DNA from: Mycobacterium kiyosense
GTDB lineage: Bacteria; Actinomycetota; Actinomycetes; Mycobacteriales; Mycobacteriaceae
Direction of reading: 5' to 3'
NCBI GenBank assembly: GCA_021654635.1
Contig: AP025179.1
Location: forward strand, 186,001 to 250,000
DNA: 64,000 nt
In this document: piece after piece, positions 26,762 to 48,277 of the stretch
Layout: the number at the start of each line of letters is the position of its first letter
Position numbering within the stretch: position 1 is the first letter of the stretch
Notes under the pieces: generated by a model
The model's database searches: none
The model's input: only the letters and a program-made list of their open reading frames with translations
What the model was told of the DNA's origin: nothing
Translations under genes and position numbers: made by a program

Positions 26762-29700
26762 ATGGCTCCCAAGAACCGCGTCTCGCGTCTATTTCTGGAA
26801 TGGCCCGTCGTCCGGCAGTTTCGCTCGGGGGATGTGTTCGGCCGCGGCCCGGCGGTGACCTCCAAGGACACCCGTTCCATCACCCCGCGCACCAGCACCG
26901 CCGATCGGGTAGTGCAGAGCGTCTGCCCGTACTGCGCGGTCGGCTGCGGGCAGCGGGTGTACGTCAAGGACGAGCGGGTGGTGCAGATCGAGGGTGACCC
27001 CGATTCGCCGATCTCGCGGGGCCGGCTGTGCCCGAAGGGGTCGGCCAGCGAACAGCTGGTCAACTCGCCGGGCCGGCAGATCAAGATGCTCTACCGGGCG
27101 CCGCGCGCCACCGAATGGCAGTCGCTGGATGTCGACACCGCCATCGACATGGTGGCCGACCGCTTCGTCGAAGCCCGCCGGCACGCCTGGCAGGACATCG
27201 ACAAAAAGGGGCACCCGTTGCGGCGCACCATGAAGATCGCCGCACTCGGCGGGGCAACGCTGGACAACGAAGAGAACTACGTCATCAAGAAGCTGTTCAC
27301 CGCCGCCGGCGCCATCCAGATCGAGAACCAAGCCCGTATTTGACACTCCGCCACAGTTCCCGGTCTGGGAACTTCCTTCGGGCGCGGCGGCGCCACCCAG
27401 TCACTGCAGGACATGGCCAATGCGGACTGCATCGTCATCCAGGGCTCGAACATGGCCGAATGCCACCCGGTGGGCTTCCAATGGGTGGAGGAGGCCAAAG
27501 CCCGCGGCTGCAAGCTGATTCATGTCGACCCGCGCTTCACCCGGACGTCGGCGTTGTCCGACAAGCACATCCCGATCCGGGCCGGCTCCGACGTGGTGTT
27601 GCTGGGCGCCCTGATCAACCATGTGATCAGCAACGACCTGTGGTTCCGGGAGTACGTGCTGGCCTACACCAACGCATCCACACTGATCAACGAAAACTAC
27701 CGGGACACCGAGGATCTGGGCGGCCTGTTCTCCGGCTTCGACCCCGAGACCGGGCAGTATGACCAGTCCTCCTGGGCCTATGCCAAGCACGAGGACGCCG
27801 ACCACGAGCACGGCGCCAGCGCCTCCGATCGGGCCGCCGGAGACGCCTACGGCATGGGCGGGCCGCCACTGGCACACGCGCGGGTGATACGCGACGAGAC
27901 ACTGCAGCACCCGCGCACGGTGTTCCAGATTCTCAAACGGCACTACGCCCGCTACACCCCCGAGATGGTGCGCGACGTCTGCGGCATCGGCATCGAGGAC
28001 TTCGGTTACCTCGCGCGAGCCATCACCGAAAACTCCGGACGTGAGCGCACCACCTGTTTCGCCTACGCCGTGGGCTGGACCCAGCACACGCTCGGAGCCC
28101 AATTCATCCGCACCGCAACGATTCTGCAGTTGCTACTGGGTAACGTGGGACGGCCCGGCGGCGGCATCATGGCGTTGCGCGGGCACGCCACCATCCAGGG
28201 CTCGACCGACATCCCGACGCTGTTCAACCTGCTGCCGGGCTACCTGCCGATGCCAAAAGCCGGTATTCACAACACGTTGCGCGACTACATCGAGGCCACC
28301 GGACCGAAGACGCAGAAGGGCTACTGGGCCAACGCCGACACCTATATCGTGAGCCTGCTCAAGGCGTGGTGGGGCGATGCCGCCACCGAAGACAACGACT
28401 GGGCGTTCGACTACCTGCCCCGCCTCGATGGCCCGCACGGCACCTATCAGACGGTCATGTCGATGCTCGAGGACGAGGTGGACGGCTACTTCATCCTGGG
28501 CCAGAATCCGGCCGTCGGGTCGGCGCACGGCCGGATGCAGCGCCTGGGCATGTCACACCTCAAGTGGCTGGTGGTGCGCGACCTCAACCTCATCGAATCC
28601 GCCACCTGGTGGAAGGACGGACCGGAGATCGCCTCCGGGGAACTGAAGACCGAGGACATCGAGACCGAGGTGTTCTTCTTCCCCGCCGCCACCCATGTCG
28701 AGAAGTCCGGGACATTCACCCAGACCCAGCGGGTGGTGCAGTGGCGCCACCAGGCGGTCGAACCGCCCGGCGACTGCCAGAGCGAACTGCAGTTCTTCGT
28801 CGAACTCGGAAACCGGATCCGGCAGCGCCTGGCCGGGTCCACCGACGAACGCGACCGCCCGCTGCTAGACCTGACCTGGAACTACCCCGTCGACGAGCAC
28901 GGCGAACCCGACCCCGAGTCGGTGCTCGCCGAGATCAACGGGTTTCGCGCGGACGGTACCCCGCTGTCGGGATTCACCGAATTGCGTGCCGACGGATCGA
29001 CGGCCTGCGGCTGCTGGATCTACTCCGGGGTCTATGCCGGCGGCGTCAACAAGGCCGCCCGCCGGGTGCCGCTCGGCGGCCCGAGCCCGATGCAATCCGA
29101 ATGGGGTTGGGCCTGGCCGGCCGATCGGCGCATCCTCTACAACCGCGCCTCGGCCGACCCGGACGGCAAACCGTGGAGCGAACGCAAGAAGCTGGTGTGG
29201 TGGGACGCCGAGCACAGCCGGTGGGTCGGACACGACGTCCCGGACTTCCCCGTCGACCGCGCTCCCGGTTCGCGGCCCGATCCCGACGTCGGCGGACCCG
29301 ACGGGCTGGCCGGCGACGACCCGTTCATCATGCAAGCCGACGGCAAGGGTTGGCTGTTCGCCCCGAAGGGCATGGTCGACGGCCCGCTGCCCACCCACTA
29401 CGAACCGCAGGAATCGCCGATCGCCAACGCGCTCTATCCCCAGCAGCAGAGCCCGTCACGAATCCTGTTCCCGCGCAAGGACAATCTGTGGGCTCCGAGT
29501 GGCGGCGAACCAGGCTCGCAGGTGTATCCGTACGTGTTCACCACCTACCGGCTCACCGAACATCACACCGCGGGCGGCATGAGCCGCTGGCTGCCCTACC
29601 TGTCCGAGCTGCAACCCGAGATGTTCTGCGAGGTCTCCCCGGAGCTGGCCGCCGACCGCGGTTTGCAGCCCTACGGCTGGGCCACCATCATCTCACCGCG

Positions 29701-30031
29701 CGGCGCGATCGAGGCCAAAGTTCTTGTGACAGAACGAATGACACCCCTGACGATCGGCGGACGCACCATCCACCAGATCGGGTTGCCGTATCACTGGGGC
29801 GTGGGCAGCGACGCCGTGGTGAGTGGCGACGGGGCGAACGACCTGCTGGGCGTGACGCTGGATCCGAACGTGCAGATCCAGGAGTCCAAGGCCGGATCCT
29901 GCGACATCCGTCCGGGCCGCCGACCCCAGGGCGAGGAACTGCTGCGCCTGATCGAGGAGTACCAGTCGCGTGCGGGCGTGACCGTGGAGACCGATAACGT
30001 TCGACTCACCGAGCGCAACCGGGAGGGCTGA
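26762..30031 (+). CDS. fdh: Formate dehydrogenase alpha subunit, selenoprotein (Sec194 encoded by UGA)
   Basis: 1089 residues when the UGA at 27341-27343 is read as selenocysteine. The N-terminal 4Fe-4S ligands are C55, C58, C62 and C90 (CPYCAVGC and LCPKG). The sequence around the UGA, ENQARI-Sec-HSATV, is the molybdenum-ligand site of FdnG-type formate dehydrogenases, where E. coli has NQARV-Sec-HGPTV. A SECIS hairpin follows at the right distance. Downstream are SNMAECHPVGFQW and the long Mo-bis-MGD domains to the end. It oxidises formate to CO2. No Tat signal is visible (the start MAPKNRVSRLFLEW lacks RR and an h-region). Its stop overlaps the beta-subunit ATG. All Sec machinery lies just downstream. 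Confidence 0.95.
27341..27373 (+). promoter_or_regulatory. Selenocysteine UGA codon and bacterial SECIS hairpin
   Basis: The UGA at 27341-27343 is followed after 11 bases by a perfect stem-loop: AGTTCCC (27355-27361), loop GGTCT, GGGAACT (27367-27373). The loop sequence GGUCU and the spacing match the E. coli fdhF SECIS, where SelB contacts the loop guanine and uracil (known). The stem is coding sequence and open in the FDH frame. Confidence 0.9.
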
Positions 30032-31008
30032 TGGGTCAACTGGCCGGACCAACCGACCCCACCGGCGATGCTCGATGGCCGGATCCCAAGCCGCGCAAAG
30101 GATTCTTCACCGACACCTCGATCTGCATCGGCTGCAAGGCGTGCGAGGTGGCCTGCAAGGAGTGGAATCGCAACCCCCTCGACGGCGACCTGGAGCTGCT
30201 CGGCTCCTCCTACGACAACACCGGCCAACTGGGCGCCAGCACCTGGCGGCACGTCGCGTTCATCGAGCAGGGCCGCGAGCGCATCGAGCAGGCGCGCGAA
30301 TCCGGCCGGGCCCTGGTGGGTCTGGGTATGCCGGCCATGCCGGGCAAGCCGGACCTCACGCCGCCGGACACCCCGGAGTTCCGCTGGCTGATGGCCTCCG
30401 ACGTCTGTAAGCACTGCACCCATGCCGGGTGTTTGGACGTCTGCCCGACCGGCGCGTTGTTCCGCACCGAGTTCGGCACCGTCGTCGTGCAGCACGACGT
30501 CTGCAACGGATGCGGAACGTGCGTGGCAGGGTGCCCGTTCGGGGTGGTCGAGCGCCGCAGCGACGGCACCTACCGAACCCCTGCGCAACGGTCCGGGCAA
30601 CGCTCGGATCGACCGGCGGAGGAGTTCGTCACGGGCGTCGCGCAGAAATGCACCCTGTGCTACGACCGGCTCCTCGACGATCAGGAACCCGCCTGCGCCA
30701 AGACCTGCCCGACGACGTCGATCAAGTTCGGTGACCACGACGGCCTGGTGCAGCAGGCCCGGGAGCGGGTCGCGGCGCTGCACGCCCGCGGGATGACCGA
30801 AGCCCGGTTGTACGGCGCCAACGAAAACGACGGCGTCGGCGGCACCGGATCGGTGTTCCTGCTGCTCGACGAGCCCGAGGTGTACGGCCTGCCGCCGGAC
30901 CCGAGGGTGTGCACCGCCGATCTGCCGCGCATGTTCAACCGGGCCGGTCTGGCCGGGGTCGGGATGGTTGCCGCGGCGGTGCTGCTTGCGTTCTGGAGGG
31001 CCCGGTGA
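30031..31008 (+). CDS. Formate dehydrogenase beta subunit, four 4Fe-4S clusters
   Basis: 325 residues of the FdnH/HybA type. Four cysteine groups are visible: CIGCKACEVACKEW (residues 32-45), CKHCTHAGCLDVCPTGA, CNGCGTCVAGCPFG and CTLCYDRLLDDQEPACAKTCP (its C-x2-C ... C-x3-C pattern). They form the wire from the Mo/Se site to the membrane partner. A single hydrophobic C-terminal segment at about 303-322 (GMVAAAVLLAFW) anchors it. The start ATG overlaps the alpha-subunit stop (TGATG), and its own stop overlaps the GTG that probably starts the NrfD gene, so the three are translationally coupled. Confidence 0.93.
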   Translation: MGQLAGPTDPTGDARWPDPKPRKGFFTDTSICIGCKACEVACKEWNRNPLDGDLELLGSSYDNTGQLGASTWRHVAFIEQGRERIEQARESGRALVGLGMPAMPGKPDLTPPDTPEFRWLMASDVCKHCTHAGCLDVCPTGALFRTEFGTVVVQHDVCNGCGTCVAGCPFGVVERRSDGTYRTPAQRSGQRSDRPAEEFVTGVAQKCTLCYDRLLDDQEPACAKTCPTTSIKFGDHDGLVQQARERVAALHARGMTEARLYGANENDGVGGTGSVFLLLDEPEVYGLPPDPRVCTADLPRMFNRAGLAGVGMVAAAVLLAFWRAR

Positions 31009-31104: not shown

Positions 31105-32076
31105 ATGGTCCCCGAGGCAGAGTTCACCTCGTACTACGGGCGCCCGGTGGTCAAGCCCGCGCCGTGGGAACACGAGGTCGCGGCGTACCTGTTCCTGGGC
31201 GGAGTGGCCGGTGGGTCCGGCCTGCTGGCGGCCGGCGCCCAACTGACCGGGCGCGCTACGCTGCGCCGCAACGCCCGGCTGTCGGCGCTGGCGGCGGCGG
31301 GAATCGGGGCGGCTGCGCTGGTCAAGGACCTCGGCCGGCCCGAACGGTTCGTCAACATGATGCGCACCATCAAGCTCACCTCGCCGATGAGCGTCGGCTC
31401 CTGGATTCTGGCTGCCTTCAGTGCCGGCGCCGGTGTGGCCGCCGCCGCCGAGATCGACCGCCTGACGGGCGAGCGCCTGCCGCTGGGTCCGCTGCGGCCA
31501 GTGCTGCGGGCGGTCGAAGGCCCTGCCGGGTTGGAAGCAGGATTGTTCGCGCCACCGCTGGCGGCCTACACCGCGGTGTTGCTCGCCGACACCGCGACTC
31601 CGACCTGGAACGCCATGCACGAGGACTTGGCGTTTGTGTTCGTCAGCTCGGCCAGCCTGGCCGCGTCCGGACTGGCGATGATCACCACCCCGGTCGCCGA
31701 GACCGGCCCGGTGCGCCGGTTGGCCGTGCTCGGCGTGCTCGGCGATGTGGTGGCGATGAGACTGATGGAACGCCGGATGGACCCGGTGGCCGCCGAACCG
31801 CTACATCACGGTGGCCCGGGGGCGATGCTGCGGTGGAGCGAGCGCCTAGCCGTTGCGGGTGCCGCGGGCACCCTGCTCGGCGGCCGGAATCGCCTACTCG
31901 CGGCTATGTCCGGCGCGGCGCTGATGGCGGCGTCGGCGCTCACCAGATTTGGTGTGTTCGAAGCGGGCAAAGAGTCGGCCCGCGATCCCCGCTACACGAT
32001 CGAGCCGCAGAAGCGCAGGCTCGCGGCCCGCCGCGCGGCCGGCATCACCGGCGACTCGATCACCACCTCCGGCTGA
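31105..32076 (+). CDS. nrfD: NrfD/PsrC-type membrane anchor of formate dehydrogenase
   Basis: 323 residues from the ATG at 31105, with about eight to nine membrane segments. The opening FTSYYGRPVVKPAPWEHEVAAYLFLGGVAGGSG is typical of NrfD quinone-site subunits (cited by its Y-Y-G-R-P and W-x-x-x-x-x-A-Y-x-F parts). LVKDLGRPERFVNMMRTIKL is the conserved D-L-G-R-P-x-R-F loop, and SPMSVGSWIL follows. It passes electrons to menaquinone. A better natural start is the GTG at 31005, coupled to the beta subunit; that frame (VSTSEFDSLRPPEP ... Arg/Gly-rich) is one base out of register, and removing one G from the G5 run at 31069-31073 restores it. Confidence 0.85.
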   Translation: MVPEAEFTSYYGRPVVKPAPWEHEVAAYLFLGGVAGGSGLLAAGAQLTGRATLRRNARLSALAAAGIGAAALVKDLGRPERFVNMMRTIKLTSPMSVGSWILAAFSAGAGVAAAAEIDRLTGERLPLGPLRPVLRAVEGPAGLEAGLFAPPLAAYTAVLLADTATPTWNAMHEDLAFVFVSSASLAASGLAMITTPVAETGPVRRLAVLGVLGDVVAMRLMERRMDPVAAEPLHHGGPGAMLRWSERLAVAGAAGTLLGGRNRLLAAMSGAALMAASALTRFGVFEAGKESARDPRYTIEPQKRRLAARRAAGITGDSITTSG

Positions 32077-32093: not shown

Positions 32094-33066
32094 CTAGCGG
32101 ATCTCGATGCCCTGTCCGCTCGCCGTGTGGCCGATGACCGGATGTCCCGGTAACTCGCCGACCACCAGCAGCCCGCCCGAGGTCTGGGCGTCGGCCAGCA
32201 ACAGCAGATCGTCCTCGGTGACGCCGGGCGCCGCGCGCAGGTGCGGCCGCACCCAGTCCAGGTTGCGCCTAGTCCCTCCCGAGACGAAGCCGTCGCGCAG
32301 CGCGTCGGTGGCGCTGTCGAGCACCGGAACCGCGGCGCGCTCGATGACCGCCCCGACCCGGGAGGCCCGGCACAGCTTGTGCAGATGCCCCAGCAGGCCG
32401 AAGCCGGTCACGTCGGTGGCGGCTTTCAACCCCGCCGCCACCGCTGCCTCGGCTGCGTCGCGGTTGAGCCGGGTCATGGTCGCGATGGCTTCGGCGAAGG
32501 CTTCGCCGGTTTGCTTGTGCCGGTTGTTGAGCAGCCCGACGCCGATCGGCTTGGTGAGAGTAAGCGGCAGTCCCGGCTCGGCGGCATCGTTGCGCAGCAG
32601 CTTGCCGGGATCGGCGACGCCGGTGACGGCCATGCCGTACTTGGGTTCCGGATCCGTCGATGGAATGTCCGCCGATCACCGGGCAGCCGGCCTCGGATGC
32701 CACCGCCAGTCCGCCGCGCAGCACCTCGGTCATCAGCTGCAGCGGCAGCAGGTCCCGCGGCCAGCCGACCAGGTTGATCGCGACCACCGGGCGGCCGCCC
32801 ATCGCATAGATGTCCGACAGCGCGTTGGCCGCGGCGATCCTGCCCCAGTCGTAGGCGTCGTCGACGACGGGCGTGAAGAAGTCGGCGGTGGACAGCACGG
32901 CAAGATCGCCAACCAGGACGGCGGCCGCGTCGTCTCCGTCGTCCAGCCCGACGAGCACGTCGGGGCCGGCCTGACCGGTCAGGCCCCGGACCGCCTCTTC
33001 GAGTTCGCCCGGAGGGATCTTGCAGGCGCAGCCGCCGCCGTGCGCGTAGCCGGTGAGTCGCCTCAT
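32094..33066 (-). pseudogene. selD: selD, selenide-water dikinase (selenophosphate synthase), +1 frameshift
   Basis: The start MRRLTGYAHGGGCACKIPPG carries the catalytic G-C-x-C-K and matches SelD, here with Cys rather than Sec. GLDDGDDAAAVLVGDLAVLSTADFF and GRIAAANALSDIYAMGG follow (ATP and metal sites). At 32654-32655 an extra C (CC where one C would do) shifts the frame; deleting it reads VIGGHSIDDPEPKYGMAVTGV without a break to the end (DAQTSGGLLVVGELP). The total length, 973 bases, is 3n+1. The enzyme makes selenophosphate for Sec-tRNA. Since the locus needs it and the shift is a single base in a C/G-rich context, a sequencing error is the best explanation. Divergent from tRNA-Sec. Confidence 0.88.
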
Positions 33067-33182: not shown

Positions 33183-33275
33183 GGAGGCGTTTGGGTTCCT
33201 GGTGGTCCCCCCGGTCTTCAAAACCGGTGAGGCCGAGTATCTCGGTCTGGCGGGTTCGATTCCCGTCCGCCTCCG
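33183..33275 (+). tRNA. selC: tRNA-Sec (anticodon UCA)
   Basis: Folds as a long selenocysteine tRNA of about 93 bases. The acceptor stem GGAGGCG (33183-33189) pairs with CGCCTCC (33268-33274), discriminator G. The anticodon stem CCGGT/ACCGG holds loop CTTCAAA with anticodon UCA at 33218-33220. A long variable arm (around GAGGCCGAGTATCTCGGTCT) and a T-arm with GGGTTCGATTCCC complete it. CCA is not encoded. It lies between selD (divergent) and selA. Confidence 0.95.
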
Positions 33276-33306
33276 CGACATTGCCCCGAGGAGGTCGAGA
33301 CATCAA

Positions 33307-34614: not shown

Positions 34615-34622
34615 CCGCGCAC

Positions 34623-36401
34623 GTGGTTGCCACCGCCGGCCATGTGGATCACGGCAAGAGCACCCTGATCCGCGCCCTGACCGGCATGGAACCGGACCGC
34701 TGGGAAGAGGAGCGGCGTCGCGGGCTGACCATCGACCTCGGCTTCGCCTGGACCACCCTGCCGTCCGGCCGGGAGGTCGCTTTCGTCGACGTGCCGGGCC
34801 ACCAGCGATTCCTGGCCAATACGCTGGCTGGCCTCGGGCCGGCACCGGTGGTGTGTTTCGTCGTTGCCGCCGACGAGGGCTGGCAGCAGCAGTCCAGCGA
34901 CCATCGCGACGCCATCGCTGCCCTGGACATCCGCTACGGCCTGATCGTGGTCACTCGTGCCGACCGGGCGCCCGAGCGCGCCGACGGGGTGCTGGCCCGG
35001 ACCCGCGAGGAGCTGGCCGAGACAGGATTGCGCGACGCTTCGGGCGTCGTGGTGTCGGCAGTGGACGGTACCGGCCTGGCGGACCTGCGCGTCGCGCTCG
35101 ACCGGGTGCTCAGCGAAGTCCCTCCACCGGATGCCGCGGCGCGGGTGCGACTGTGGGTGGACCGGGCCTTCACCATCGCCGGTGCCGGAACCGTTGTCAC
35201 CGGAACGCTCGCCGCCGGGACGCTCACCAGCGGTGAGCGACTGGAAATGCTTGGGATACAACGGAAAACGAGTGTCGCCGTGCGGGGATTGCAGAGCTGC
35301 GGGAAACCGTACCCGGTGCTGGAACCGGTGTCCCGGGCCGCCGTGAACCTACGCGGCGTTCCCCGCGACGTGGTTCGGCGCGGGGACGTGCTGCTCACCT
35401 CGGATGCCTGGCCGATCACCCGCGCCGTGGACGCGCGACGCACCACCGGCTGCCCGTGGACCGAAGCCCCGACGCAACTCGTGGTCCACGTCGGCACCGC
35501 GGCGGTGCCGGGCCGGCTGCGCCCGTTCGGCGACGACCACGGCCGGCTCGCCCTCGACCGGCGACTGCCACTGGTCCTGGGCGACCGGCTGGTATTGCGC
35601 GACCCCGGTACCCGTCGGGTACTCGGCGGGGCTTTGGTGCTCGACGCCGATCCGCCGGCACTGCGGCGTCGCGGTGACAGCGCGCGCCGGCAGCAGGCGC
35701 TGGCCTTGATGAGCGACAGTGGGGATCTCGCCGCCGAGGTGGCCCGCCGTGGTGTGGTGGCCGTAGCCCATCTGAGCCGGCTGGGACTGCGGACCGATGC
35801 GGTGCCGGACGGGGTGACGGTACTGGACGGCTGGTGGGTGGACACCGGCACGTACCAGGCTTGGCAGCAGCGACTGGCTGTCGCCGTCAAGGCGTTGCAT
35901 GCACGGGATCCGTTGGCGGACGGTCTTTCTCGTGGCGCTGCTCGTGTTTCGCTCGGCCTGCCGGATGAGGCGCTGCTCGACGCGCTGGTACGCGACGCGG
36001 GACTCGAACAACGGGCGGGCCACATCCGGGTGCCCGGCGCCGGGGCGGATCTCGGCAACGCCGAGGCGGCGGTGCGCGAGCTGGAGACTCGGCTGCGGGC
36101 CGAGCCGTTCCGGGCGCCCGAGGCCTACGAATTGCGGGCGCTCGGCCTGGGTGCCCGTGCGCTGGCCGTCGCCGAGCGAACCGGTCGGATATTACGGTTG
36201 CGAGATGGCGTGGTGCTGTTGCCGACGGCGCCCGCGCTGGCGATGCGCGAACTGGCCCGCCTCGAGCAGCCGTTCACCACCAGCCAGGCGCGCCAAGCGT
36301 TGGGCACCACCCGTCGGGTGGCGATACCGCTGCTGGAACACCTCGACGCCCGCGGCTGGACACGTCGCCTCGACGCCGGACATCGCGAGGTGGTGCGATA
36401 G
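34623..36401 (+). CDS. selB: Selenocysteine-specific elongation factor SelB
   Basis: 592 residues from the GTG at 34623. The GTPase domain opens VVATAGHVDHGKSTLIRALTG, with RRRGLTIDLGFAW, FVDVPGHQRF, the base-binding VTRAD (N-K-x-D equivalent) and SAVDGTG. EF-Tu-like domains 2 and 3 follow (AGAGTVVTGTLAAGTLTSGE). The C-terminal part is the winged-helix array that binds the SECIS hairpin, ending LEQPFTTSQARQALGTTRRVAIPLLEHLDARGW (by its last wing). It delivers Sec-tRNA to UGA codons marked by a SECIS element. Nine bases after selA, so selA-selB are one operon. Confidence 0.94.
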   Translation: MVATAGHVDHGKSTLIRALTGMEPDRWEEERRRGLTIDLGFAWTTLPSGREVAFVDVPGHQRFLANTLAGLGPAPVVCFVVAADEGWQQQSSDHRDAIAALDIRYGLIVVTRADRAPERADGVLARTREELAETGLRDASGVVVSAVDGTGLADLRVALDRVLSEVPPPDAAARVRLWVDRAFTIAGAGTVVTGTLAAGTLTSGERLEMLGIQRKTSVAVRGLQSCGKPYPVLEPVSRAAVNLRGVPRDVVRRGDVLLTSDAWPITRAVDARRTTGCPWTEAPTQLVVHVGTAAVPGRLRPFGDDHGRLALDRRLPLVLGDRLVLRDPGTRRVLGGALVLDADPPALRRRGDSARRQQALALMSDSGDLAAEVARRGVVAVAHLSRLGLRTDAVPDGVTVLDGWWVDTGTYQAWQQRLAVAVKALHARDPLADGLSRGAARVSLGLPDEALLDALVRDAGLEQRAGHIRVPGAGADLGNAEAAVRELETRLRAEPFRAPEAYELRALGLGARALAVAERTGRILRLRDGVVLLPTAPALAMRELARLEQPFTTSQARQALGTTRRVAIPLLEHLDARGWTRRLDAGHREVVR

Positions 36402-45819: not shown

Positions 45820-47403
45820 GTGCGCGATGACGGATCACCGATCACCACGGGAACGGATTGCGACGTGGCGATCGTCGGGTATGGGCCGGTCGGCGCCACC
45901 GCCGCCAACCTGCTGGGTCAGCTCGGACTCAAAGTCGTTGTGATCGAACGTGATCCAGACATCTACAACCGGGCCCGCGCCATCTCGACCGACGAAGAAG
46001 TGATGCGCGTCTGGCAATCGGTGGGACTCGCCGACCGCTTGCAACAGGACATGCTCGGCAACCGGCCGTTGGCCTTCGTCGATGCGACGGGCGCGCCGTT
46101 CTACGAAACCACCATCACCGGTCGCGGATGTGGGCATCCGCCCCAGCAGTTCATCTACCAGCCGGCCGTCGACGAGGTGCTGCGTACGGGCGTGGCACGG
46201 TTCGCCGGTGTGCAGGTGCTGCTCGAGCACGAGTGTCTGCGGGTGGCGAACAAGGACGATCACGTCGAGTTGATGCTCGCCGACCTGCGCCGGGATGCCT
46301 TCAAGCGGATCCGCGCCACGTATGTGATCGCCGCCGACGGTGGTTCCTCACCCACCCGCGGGCAGCTCGGCGTCGGATACTCCGGAAAGACTTACAGCGA
46401 GCGGTGGGTGGTTATCGACACCGAAGTCATCAAGAAGTGGGATGCCCACGACCGCTTGCGGTTTCACTGCAATCCGGCCCGGCCGACCGTGGACTGCCCC
46501 ACCCCGCTGGGCCACCACCGATGGGAGTACCCCGCCCGAGGCGGTGCAGACGACAAGCAGCTCACCAGCGACGAGGCCGTCTGGCGGGTGCTCAACGAGC
46601 AGGGCATCACCGAAGAGCACGTCAAGATCCTGCGCGCGGTGATCTACCGGCACCATGTTCGGGTCGCCGACCGCTGGCGGGTGGGACGGATTTTCCTCGC
46701 CGGAGACGCCGCGCATGCGATGCCGCCGTGGATCGGCCAAGGCATGGCCGCGGGAGTGCGGGACGTGGCGAATTTGTGCTGGAAACTCGCGGCGGTACTC
46801 CGGGGCCAGGCGTCCGATTCCCTGCTCGATTCCTATGAGACAGAACGCAAACCGCACGTTACCGAGGTGACCCGCCGCGCGGTGCTGATTGGCCGGATCA
46901 TCACCGAGCGCAACCCGGTGCTGGCCACGATCCGCAACCACCTACTGCGCATCCTCACCAAGTCGGCGGCGATCAGCCGGCAGGGCCAGAAGCTCTACTG
47001 GATCCCCGAAGCACACTATGCGGACGGGTTCTTCGCCGGCGCCGGGCACCGGGCGGAGGGCCGCCAGATCATCCAGCCGTGGGTCATCGACGACGCCGGC
47101 ATGAAGTGTCGCCTCGACGACGTGTTGCAGCGCCGCTGGACGCTGCTGCACGTCGGGGCAGTGCCGACGGGCGCGCAGGCCTGGTTGCAACGCGGTGTGA
47201 CCGCGATCCCGGTCCGCGACACCACCCTGACGGCCTGGTTTCATCGGCACCGGGCCAGCGCGGCAATCCTGCGTCCGGACGGATTCGTCTACACCGCAGC
47301 AGGTTCCGGCACGGCGTTGGCGTCGCCGCCCCCGCGCCTGAACTGTGCCCCACCAGCCGCCGTCGCTACGGCGGCGCCGATCCGCAGGGAGGTTCCCGCG
47401 TGA
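45820..47403 (+). CDS. mhpA: 3-(3-hydroxyphenyl)propionate hydroxylase-like flavin monooxygenase
   Basis: 527 residues, the length of MhpA-type hydroxylases. The FAD motif is [22 protein letters not shown] with VVIERD and the substrate-side [23 protein letters not shown] (by its A-I-S-x-D-E-E core). The DG motif is [16 protein letters not shown]; the second FAD motif is [25 protein letters not shown] thioredoxin-like C-terminal domain follows ([11 protein letters not shown]). It hydroxylates a phenol ring ortho to the hydroxyl with NAD(P)H. The start is a GTG at 45820. It overlaps the hydrolase start by four bases. Confidence 0.85.
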
Positions 47404-48277
47404 GCACCAACCAGCTCTCCGAACAGACCGTCACCGTCAGCGGCAAGCCGATCTTCTTCGCCGAATCCGGTAGCGGCCCAGTCGTCGTCGCGCTACACGG
47501 TGGCGGCCCCGGTGCCTCCGGCGTCTCGAACTATTCCCGCAATATCGACGCGCTCGCCCAGCGGTTCCGGGTGATCGTGCCCGACATGCCCGGCTACGGC
47601 CGATCCACCAAGACGCTGGACCAAGGCGATCCGTTCGGCTACCTCGCCGACATGATCCGGGGCCTGCTCGATGAACTCCGACTCCCCACAGCGCATCTGA
47701 TCGGCAACTCCTACGGGGGGCGCGGCCGCGCTGCGGCTCACGCTGGACACCCCGGAGCGGGTCGACAAGCTGGTGCTGATGGGTCCCGGCGGTATCGGAA
47801 CCACCCCGGGGTCTGCCCACCGCGGGATTGAACAGCCTGATGTCGTACTACGGCGGCGAGGGCCCCAGCCGCGAGAAGCTCGCCACCTTCATCCGCACCT
47901 ACCTTGTCTACCAGGGTGATTCGGTGCCCGAGGAGTTGATCGACCTGCGGTATCAGGCGTCGATCGACCCGGAGGTGGTGGCCAACCCGCCGCTGCGCCG
48001 CCCGTCCGGGCCGTTCGCGCTACGCACGCTGTGGCGGATGGATCTGACCCGCGACTCCCGGTTGAAGAACTTGCAGACACCCACGCTGGTGCTGTGGGGC
48101 CGCGACGACAAGGTCAACAAACCCGCGGGAGGTCCAATGCTGCTCAACGCCATGCCAAATGCCGAACTGGTGATGACCTCGCACACCGGTCACTGGATGC
48201 AATGGGAACGCGCGGAGCTGTTCAACGAGCTGGTTTCCGATTTCCTGCAACCGGATTCGAGGCTCGCCCATGCCTAG
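47400..48277 (+). pseudogene. mhpC: MhpC/HsaD-type meta-cleavage product hydrolase with two +1 frameshifts
   Basis: An alpha/beta hydrolase of carbon-carbon bonds in ring-fission products. It starts [16 protein letters not shown] and has VVALHGGGPGASGVSNYSRN (oxyanion), HLIGNSYGG (nucleophile Ser), WGRDDKVNKPAGG (Asp) and SHTGHWMQWE (His). Two extra G's break it: one in the G6 run at 47715-47720 and one in the G4 run at 47808-47811. Removing both gives a continuous 291-residue protein (GNSYGGAAALRL ... GTTPGLPTAGLNSLM), and the total length is 3n+2. Both shifts in G runs within 100 bases suggest sequencing error. Coupled to mhpA and to the dioxygenase by overlaps. Confidence 0.85.

What the first reader, a model, noticed from the sequence alone, without database searches (positions are those of the whole stretch)
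26762..30031. Selenoprotein formate dehydrogenase with in-frame UGA in a mycobacterial genome
Two adjacent open frames (26762-27343 and 27413-30031) are one gene. The UGA at 27341 falls exactly at the Mo-ligand position (NQARI-UGA-HSATV), and a SECIS-like hairpin AGTTCCC/GGTCT/GGGAACT begins 11 bases after it. Standard callers would annotate a truncated fragment plus a headless protein and so miss the selenoenzyme.
Basis: partly seen in the sequence, partly recalled or inferred. Interest (0 to 1): 0.88.

Follow-up and report, generated by a model that had tools for sequence, protein, structure and literature searches.

The report
Mycobacterial selenocysteine formate dehydrogenase gene
A mycobacterial gene for an enzyme that oxidises formate carries a stop codon that the cell is built to read as the rare amino acid selenocysteine, a known arrangement in related soil bacteria, but in this particular genome sequence one gene needed to make selenocysteine looks broken.

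Summary
Observation right, interpretation supported. TGA 27341-27343 lies in frame between two halves of one FdhA. Aligned apart to solved FDHs, the halves leave out exactly one residue, recalled as selenocysteine in them. A 7-bp hairpin with loop GGTCT begins after 11 more bases. The best 80 relatives all have TGA there and keep the hairpin. Nine stop-less copies read have Cys. In one sister family the codon is TAG, with a CTA-anticodon Sec tRNA in 6 of 6 genomes checked. The window holds fdhA-fdhB-nrfD, selD, tRNA-Sec, selA, selB. Of 198 genus genomes, selD is found in 84 of 85 with TGA-fdhA and 0 of 113 others. This is a new member of a known kind. Other genes nearby change frame too, so assembly error is likelier than real loss, but unproven. 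If real, this isolate should not make the enzyme.

The parts
26762..30031 (+). fdhA: catalytic (metallopterin, 4Fe-4S) subunit of formate dehydrogenase, with in-frame Sec codon; no twin-arginine pair in its first 50 residues
   Evidence: NF041513 1931.3 bits over positions 3-1067, 1 TGA inside, cut-off 1400; pieces match 1kqf, 1h0h, 6sdr; Pfam PF04879, PF00384, PF01568
27341..27343 (+). TGA read as selenocysteine
27355..27373 (+). bacterial SECIS hairpin, 7-bp stem, loop GGTCT
   Evidence: 81 of 81 sequences keep at least 6 of 7 pairs; pair counts with controls; low synonymous diversity
30031..31008 (+). fdhB: 4Fe-4S electron-transfer subunit
   Evidence: best NCBIfam hit TIGR01582, 165.5 bits, under its cut-off of 334.7; Fer4 domains
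31105..32076 (+). fdhC: NrfD-type membrane subunit
   Evidence: PF03916 NrfD 56.4 bits, cut-off 25.8; only NCBIfam hit an NrfD model far under its cut-off
32094..33066 (-). selD (selenide, water dikinase), split between two reading frames in this assembly
   Evidence: TIGR00476 positions 1-141 and 147-305 in two ORFs; own-genome scan; frame comparison
33183..33276 (+). tRNA-Sec, anticodon TCA
   Evidence: ARAGORN; Rfam RF01852 75.2 bits
33277..34614 (+). selA (Sec synthase), start codon uncertain
   Evidence: TIGR00474 433.8 bits, cut-off 267.9
34617..36401 (+). selB (Sec-specific elongation factor), start codon uncertain
   Evidence: TIGR00475 266.1 bits, cut-off 242.25; SelB winged-helix domain PF09107

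Best explanation
The two frames are one gene for FdhA, the catalytic subunit of an actinobacterial formate dehydrogenase FdhABC (FdhB iron-sulfur, FdhC NrfD-type membrane subunit). SelB binds the hairpin just after the UGA and delivers Sec-tRNA-Sec, made by SelA from selenophosphate supplied by SelD. Sec then ligates the Mo or W, formate is oxidised to CO2, and electrons pass through FdhB to FdhC and probably to menaquinone. Shown by comparison: codon position, hairpin conservation, linked sel genes, co-occurrence with selD. Inferred: the chemistry, the quinone, and the cytoplasmic side (no twin-arginine pair). In this assembly selD is split in frame. If that is a sequencing error the enzyme is made in the ordinary way; if it is real, translation should stop at the UGA in this isolate.
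For: Pieces given apart leave exactly one residue unmatched in each solved relative: 1h0h 158, 1kqf 196, D. vulgaris FdhA 192. TGA in 80 of 80 relatives, the best 80 of 592 confirmed. The stem keeps 7 of 7 pairs in 76 and 6 in 5 of 81 sequences. On 27 of these, 97.9% of cells pair; covariation 0.182 against 0.141 shuffled, 0 of 500 as high. Synonymous diversity is low there: Val GTT in 78 of 81 at codon +5 although GTT is 3 of this gene's 69 Val codons; Pro CCC in 81 of 81. Stop-less copies: 9 of 9 read are Cys. selD at E <= 1e-40 in 84 of 85 TGA-fdhA genomes and 0 of 113 others. In family f16, 17 of 17 matched genomes have TAG in the frame; 6 of 6 checked carry a Sec-type tRNA with anticodon CTA. 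FdhD is in the genome. In an actinobacterium with three predicted Sec-FDHs formate removal needs selenite (PMC7176365, section 7).
Against: The only selD over cut-off in this genome is in two frames, so the pathway is incomplete as sequenced. Hairpin energy is not below shuffles. Only 2 of 7 pairs change on both sides and 3 never vary; 37 of 500 shuffles reach 2 such pairs. One Cys copy (L105) still has 6 of 7 stem pairs. I saw no protein or selenium measurement for this species. FdhB is under the cut-off of the E. coli-type FDH beta model.
Confidence: 0.95

Rival explanations
1. The gene is a Sec-FDH by design, but this isolate has really lost selenocysteine synthesis because its sole selD is frameshifted; the UGA then acts as a stop and FdhA is a 193-residue fragment.
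For: selD split and no other selD over cut-off in the 6.35-Mb one-contig genome. The lone C part is listed from this contig only (P0241). The fdhA cluster P0121 stands for 17 contigs, the whole near-identical SelD P0003 for one; the selD state of the other contigs could not be seen. At least one other database SelD (P0001) matches the query's out-of-frame tail, so such splits are not unique.
Against: fdhA, fdhB, fdhC, selA, selB and tRNA-Sec are intact. A near-identical SelD (C part 179 of 179 identical, N part 136 of 137 aligned) is whole on a 6.22-Mb contig (P0003). In 144 kb of this genome other genes change frame against one relative, among them a hydrolase and a solute-binding protein whose pieces match parts of one domain in order, which points to assembly indels.
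Confidence: 0.3
2. The UGA is a genuine stop: a pseudogene, or two separate proteins.
For: Conventional ORF calling gives two frames.
Against: Same codon in 80 of 80 fetched relatives including Arthrobacter and Kocuria; conserved hairpin; co-occurrence with selD; TAG with a CTA-anticodon tRNA in a sister family. The second half would lack the 4Fe-4S domain.
Confidence: 0.02
3. The selD frame change is bridged by programmed ribosomal frameshifting, as a control on Sec synthesis.
For: Both halves are conserved in sequence.
Against: 74 of 74 fetched loci with both pieces have them in one frame, and so do 83 of 84 genus genomes with selD, this one being the exception.
Confidence: 0.02

Closest known systems
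Actinomycetospora chiangmaiensis FDH1 (PMC7176365; passages and section 7 read)
   Same: Sec-containing membrane-bound FdhA1-FdhB1-FdhC1 listed with SelA and SelB in one cluster; the strain's formate removal needs selenite
   Different: a permease is listed in that cluster and its SelD bears no FDH1 label; that strain has three Sec-FDH systems, so the selenium effect is not tied to FDH1 alone; here one NF041513 gene was found
NCBIfam NF041513 formate_DH_Act
   Same: window gene 1931.3 bits over positions 3-1067, cut-off 1400
   Different: no difference seen; the six best-scoring genus copies have no stop, and all six are Cys
E. coli FdnG (1kqf) and Desulfovibrio FDHs (1h0h, 6sdr)
   Same: a one-residue gap at the position recalled as Sec
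   Different: no twin-arginine pair here; membrane subunit of NrfD type, not cytochrome b (recalled for FdnI)
Geodermatophilaceae UAG-Sec (PMC5330540, passages read)
   Same: Sec formate dehydrogenases; if family f16 is that family (recall, not shown), the same loop GGTCT
   Different: TAG and CTA there, TGA and TCA here

Membership tests
Bacterial selenoprotein gene | in-frame UGA at a position that is Sec or Cys in homologues | tested here: met
Bacterial selenoprotein gene | conserved SECIS hairpin just downstream | tested here: met
   energy alone not significant
Bacterial selenoprotein gene | tRNA-Sec, SelA, SelB in the genome | tested here: met
Bacterial selenoprotein gene | intact SelD in the genome | tested here: inconclusive
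   present but in two frames; whole in a near-identical genome
Bacterial selenoprotein gene | Sec found in the protein | not testable with these tools
   needs mass spectrometry or selenium labelling
Actinobacterial formate dehydrogenase NF041513 | score over curated cut-off, full length | tested here: met
FDH-N alpha, TIGR01553 | score over curated cut-off of 814.2 bits | tested here: inconclusive
   pieces score 127.3 and 737.8 bits apart; the whole was not scored against this model
E. coli-type FdnGHI | beta subunit over the TIGR01582 cut-off | tested here: not met
   165.5 against 334.7 bits

The most novel reading that the evidence does not exclude
Within one bacterial genus, Sec decoding behaves as an exchangeable module around a single fixed client: some mycobacteria kept fdhABC and its SECIS but replaced the whole selB-selA-tRNA-selD block by a foreign one, others lack selD and keep only a Cys enzyme, and the window isolate stands at the first step of loss with its only selD truly broken.
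Probability: 0.2. Interest if true: 0.45.

Novelty: new member of a known kind. Interest (0 to 1): 0.3.

Why it matters
It suggests that Sec-dependent formate oxidation is common in Mycobacterium (TGA-fdhA in 85 of 198 genomes sampled), while the 120 best database proteins are all of headless length. It also warns that in this genome the pathway looks complete at first sight but has a split selD, so claims about the strain need resequencing.

Tried and rejected
Fold energy of the hairpin as evidence: rejected, z -0.39. A second selD elsewhere: four further places match TIGR00476 with 20.7-52.6 bits against a cut-off of 125. Programmed frameshift in selD: rejected, not shared by relatives. At gathering scores Rfam reports only tRNA-Sec in the window. 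Structure prediction was not run: matches to solved FDHs sufficed. Other selenoproteins of this genome were not sought.

Papers: five searches, listing 16 of 16, 20 of 177, 20 of 121, 20 of 86 and 15 of 3,562 papers. No title so listed treats selenoproteins of mycobacteria; this covers only those listings of an open library. Passages only were seen of PMC1242214, PMC1794560, PMC5029168, PMC13188914 and PMC5330540; of PMC7176365 passages and section 7. All other papers were seen as listings.

Limits: the 80 relatives are the best-scoring 80, so close kin are over-represented. One search used 27 of 81 hairpin sequences; one search used 67 rows (window included), those with both proteins. The genus and order samples (198, 150, 200 genomes) are drawn from larger unnamed groups. 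G101 (about 300 contigs) is the one TGA-fdhA genome without a selD match. In one search, 14 frame changes were listed in one direction and 6 in the other; many are shadow ORFs, and picking the real genes is my judgement. Of the 120 SelD proteins listed, 119 match both window pieces, but P0002 and P0028 match only the first 54 and 50 residues of the C piece and P0001 matches the N piece alone. G299, with a TGA and a TAG, was fetched; its codon was not resolved.

Full report
What is there. The hairpin is where it was said to be, 11 bases after the TGA. On its own it is not energetically remarkable in this GC-rich DNA. Its position is: perfect hairpins of this shape start at 15 of 63,981 positions of the window.

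Why the codon is Sec. The pieces on either side of the TGA were aligned apart to solved structures. Against Desulfovibrio gigas FDH (1h0h; species recalled) the first ends at residue 157 and the second begins at 159; against E. coli FdnG (1kqf) 195 and 197; against the FDH that its depositors call selenocysteine-containing (6sdr and others, recalled as D. vulgaris) 191 and 193. The missing residue is the one I recall as the Sec metal ligand in all three. In 80 of 80 fetched relatives, the best 80 of 592 confirmed (Mycobacterium, Arthrobacter, Sinomonas, Kocuria and others), the codon is TGA.

Why the hairpin matters. Among 81 sequences, 76 keep all 7 pairs and 5 keep 6; the loop is GGTCT in 52, AGTTT in 15, AGTCT in 14. 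On 27 of them 97.9% of cells pair, the covariation score is 0.182 against 0.141 in shuffles (0 of 500 as high), and sliding the partner by one column drops pairing to 70-72%. Only 2 of 7 pairs show changes on both sides (reached by 37 of 500 shuffles) and 3 never vary. Synonymous diversity is low inside it: Val is GTT in 78 of 81 though this gene uses GTT for 3 of 69 Val codons, and Pro is CCC in 81 of 81. Stop-less copies are the contrast: all 7 full-length ones of the genus sample are Cys with 3 to 6 of 7 stem pairs, and 2 more of the order sample are Cys with 4 of 7.

The stop codon and the tRNA change together. In one family of the same order (f16), 17 of 17 genomes with a match have TAG in the frame instead of TGA. 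The six that I fetched have it at exactly this codon, with loop GGTCT and all 7 stem pairs. All six carry an RF01852 match whose anticodon is CTA (labelled tRNA-Pyl by ARAGORN); one of them, G278, has a TCA one as well. This fits the UAG-Sec system reported for Geodermatophilaceae (PMC5330540, passages); that f16 is that family is recall. One genome of another family, G299, shows both a TGA and a TAG and was not resolved.

The neighbourhood. Downstream come fdhB, an NrfD-type membrane subunit, selD on the other strand, tRNA-Sec, selA and selB, all within 10 kb. Of 80 relatives, 74 hold both selD pieces within the fetched stretch; of 31 loci scanned for tRNAs (of 80), 30 hold tRNA-Sec. FdhD, needed by FDHs by general knowledge, is elsewhere in the genome. 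The first 50 residues of FdhA have no twin-arginine pair, so a cytoplasmic-side active site is inferred.

Distribution. Of 198 genomes of the genus, 90 match NF041513 at E <= 1e-100: 85 with a TGA form, 5 with a Cys form only; two of the 85 have both. selD at E <= 1e-40 is in 84 of the 85 and in none of the other 113. So the Sec machinery tracks this client in the sample.

The split selD. In the window the two halves of selD lie in two frames. No other selD passes the cut-off in this genome. In relatives with both pieces 74 of 74 are in one frame; in the genus 83 of 84, the window's genome being the exception. A database SelD on a 6.22-Mb contig is whole and identical over all 179 residues of the C part and 136 of 137 aligned of the N part (P0003); the lone C part is listed from this genome only (P0241). 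Against a simple artefact: the fdhA cluster P0121 stands for 17 contigs, P0003 for one, and I could not see selD in the others; and another record, P0001, looks split in a like way. For an artefact: a comparison of 144 kb of this genome with one relative listed 14 frame changes against 6 the other way. Besides selD I judge a hydrolase (window 47.1-48.3 kb), a solute-binding protein and a short-chain dehydrogenase in the next 80 kb to be affected; for the first two the pieces match parts of one Pfam domain in order. Assembly indels are therefore the likelier cause. I do not say which change would restore any of them.

Two kinds of Sec machinery in Mycobacterium. In 23 of 80 relatives, all named Mycobacterium or Mycolicibacterium (M. 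colombiense, M. interjectum, M. europaeum and others), selD and the other sel genes lie upstream of fdhA in inverted order. Their proteins are far from the window's: selD pieces 65-71%, selB 46-49% identical where it was in the locus, one partial hit apart. In a SelB tree of 67 rows the 17 of this kind form one side of a branch; in the FdhA tree of the same rows they need two changes and 3 of them fall in the window's supported group of 14. The SelB of one of them, searched in 200 genomes of the order, is 81% identical to one in family f14 and 52% to the window's own. The simplest reading is replacement of the decoding block by a foreign one while the client gene stayed. The trees are quick ones and the donor is not identified.

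Verdict. The finding is real and correctly read. It is a new member of a known kind: NCBI has a model for this enzyme family, and in Actinomycetospora, with three predicted Sec-FDHs, formate removal needs selenium (PMC7176365). I score it low to middling. Its value lies in the corrected annotation, the tracking of selD with the Sec client, and the warning about selD in this assembly.

Noticed in passing
L021, L024, L031 and 20 other loci; e.g. L031:5183-9242: Some mycobacteria carry a diverged, inverted selB-selA-tRNA-selD block upstream of an fdhA close to the window's; it looks like replacement of the Sec machinery by a foreign one.
   Followed up: partly
L122-L127; tRNA loci L128, L132-L137: In one family of the same order the Sec codon of fdhA is TAG with a tRNA anticodon CTA; one genome (G278) also has a TCA tRNA-Sec. 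Reported for Geodermatophilaceae.
   Followed up: partly
window 32094-33066 (-): The only selD over cut-off in the genome is in two reading frames.
   Followed up: yes
window 47091-48274; L110:7086-8146; L111:12487-13351: Three more genes whose pieces lie in different frames against a relative's single ORF: hydrolase, solute-binding protein, short-chain dehydrogenase.
   Followed up: partly
codon 27338-27340 and its equivalents: The Ile codon just before the Sec codon is ATT (72) or ATA (9) in 81 sequences, never ATC, in GC-rich genomes; cause unknown.
   Followed up: no
G299:C295:3935-7123 (L142): An fdhA match with both a TGA and a TAG in frame; fetched, not resolved.
   Followed up: partly
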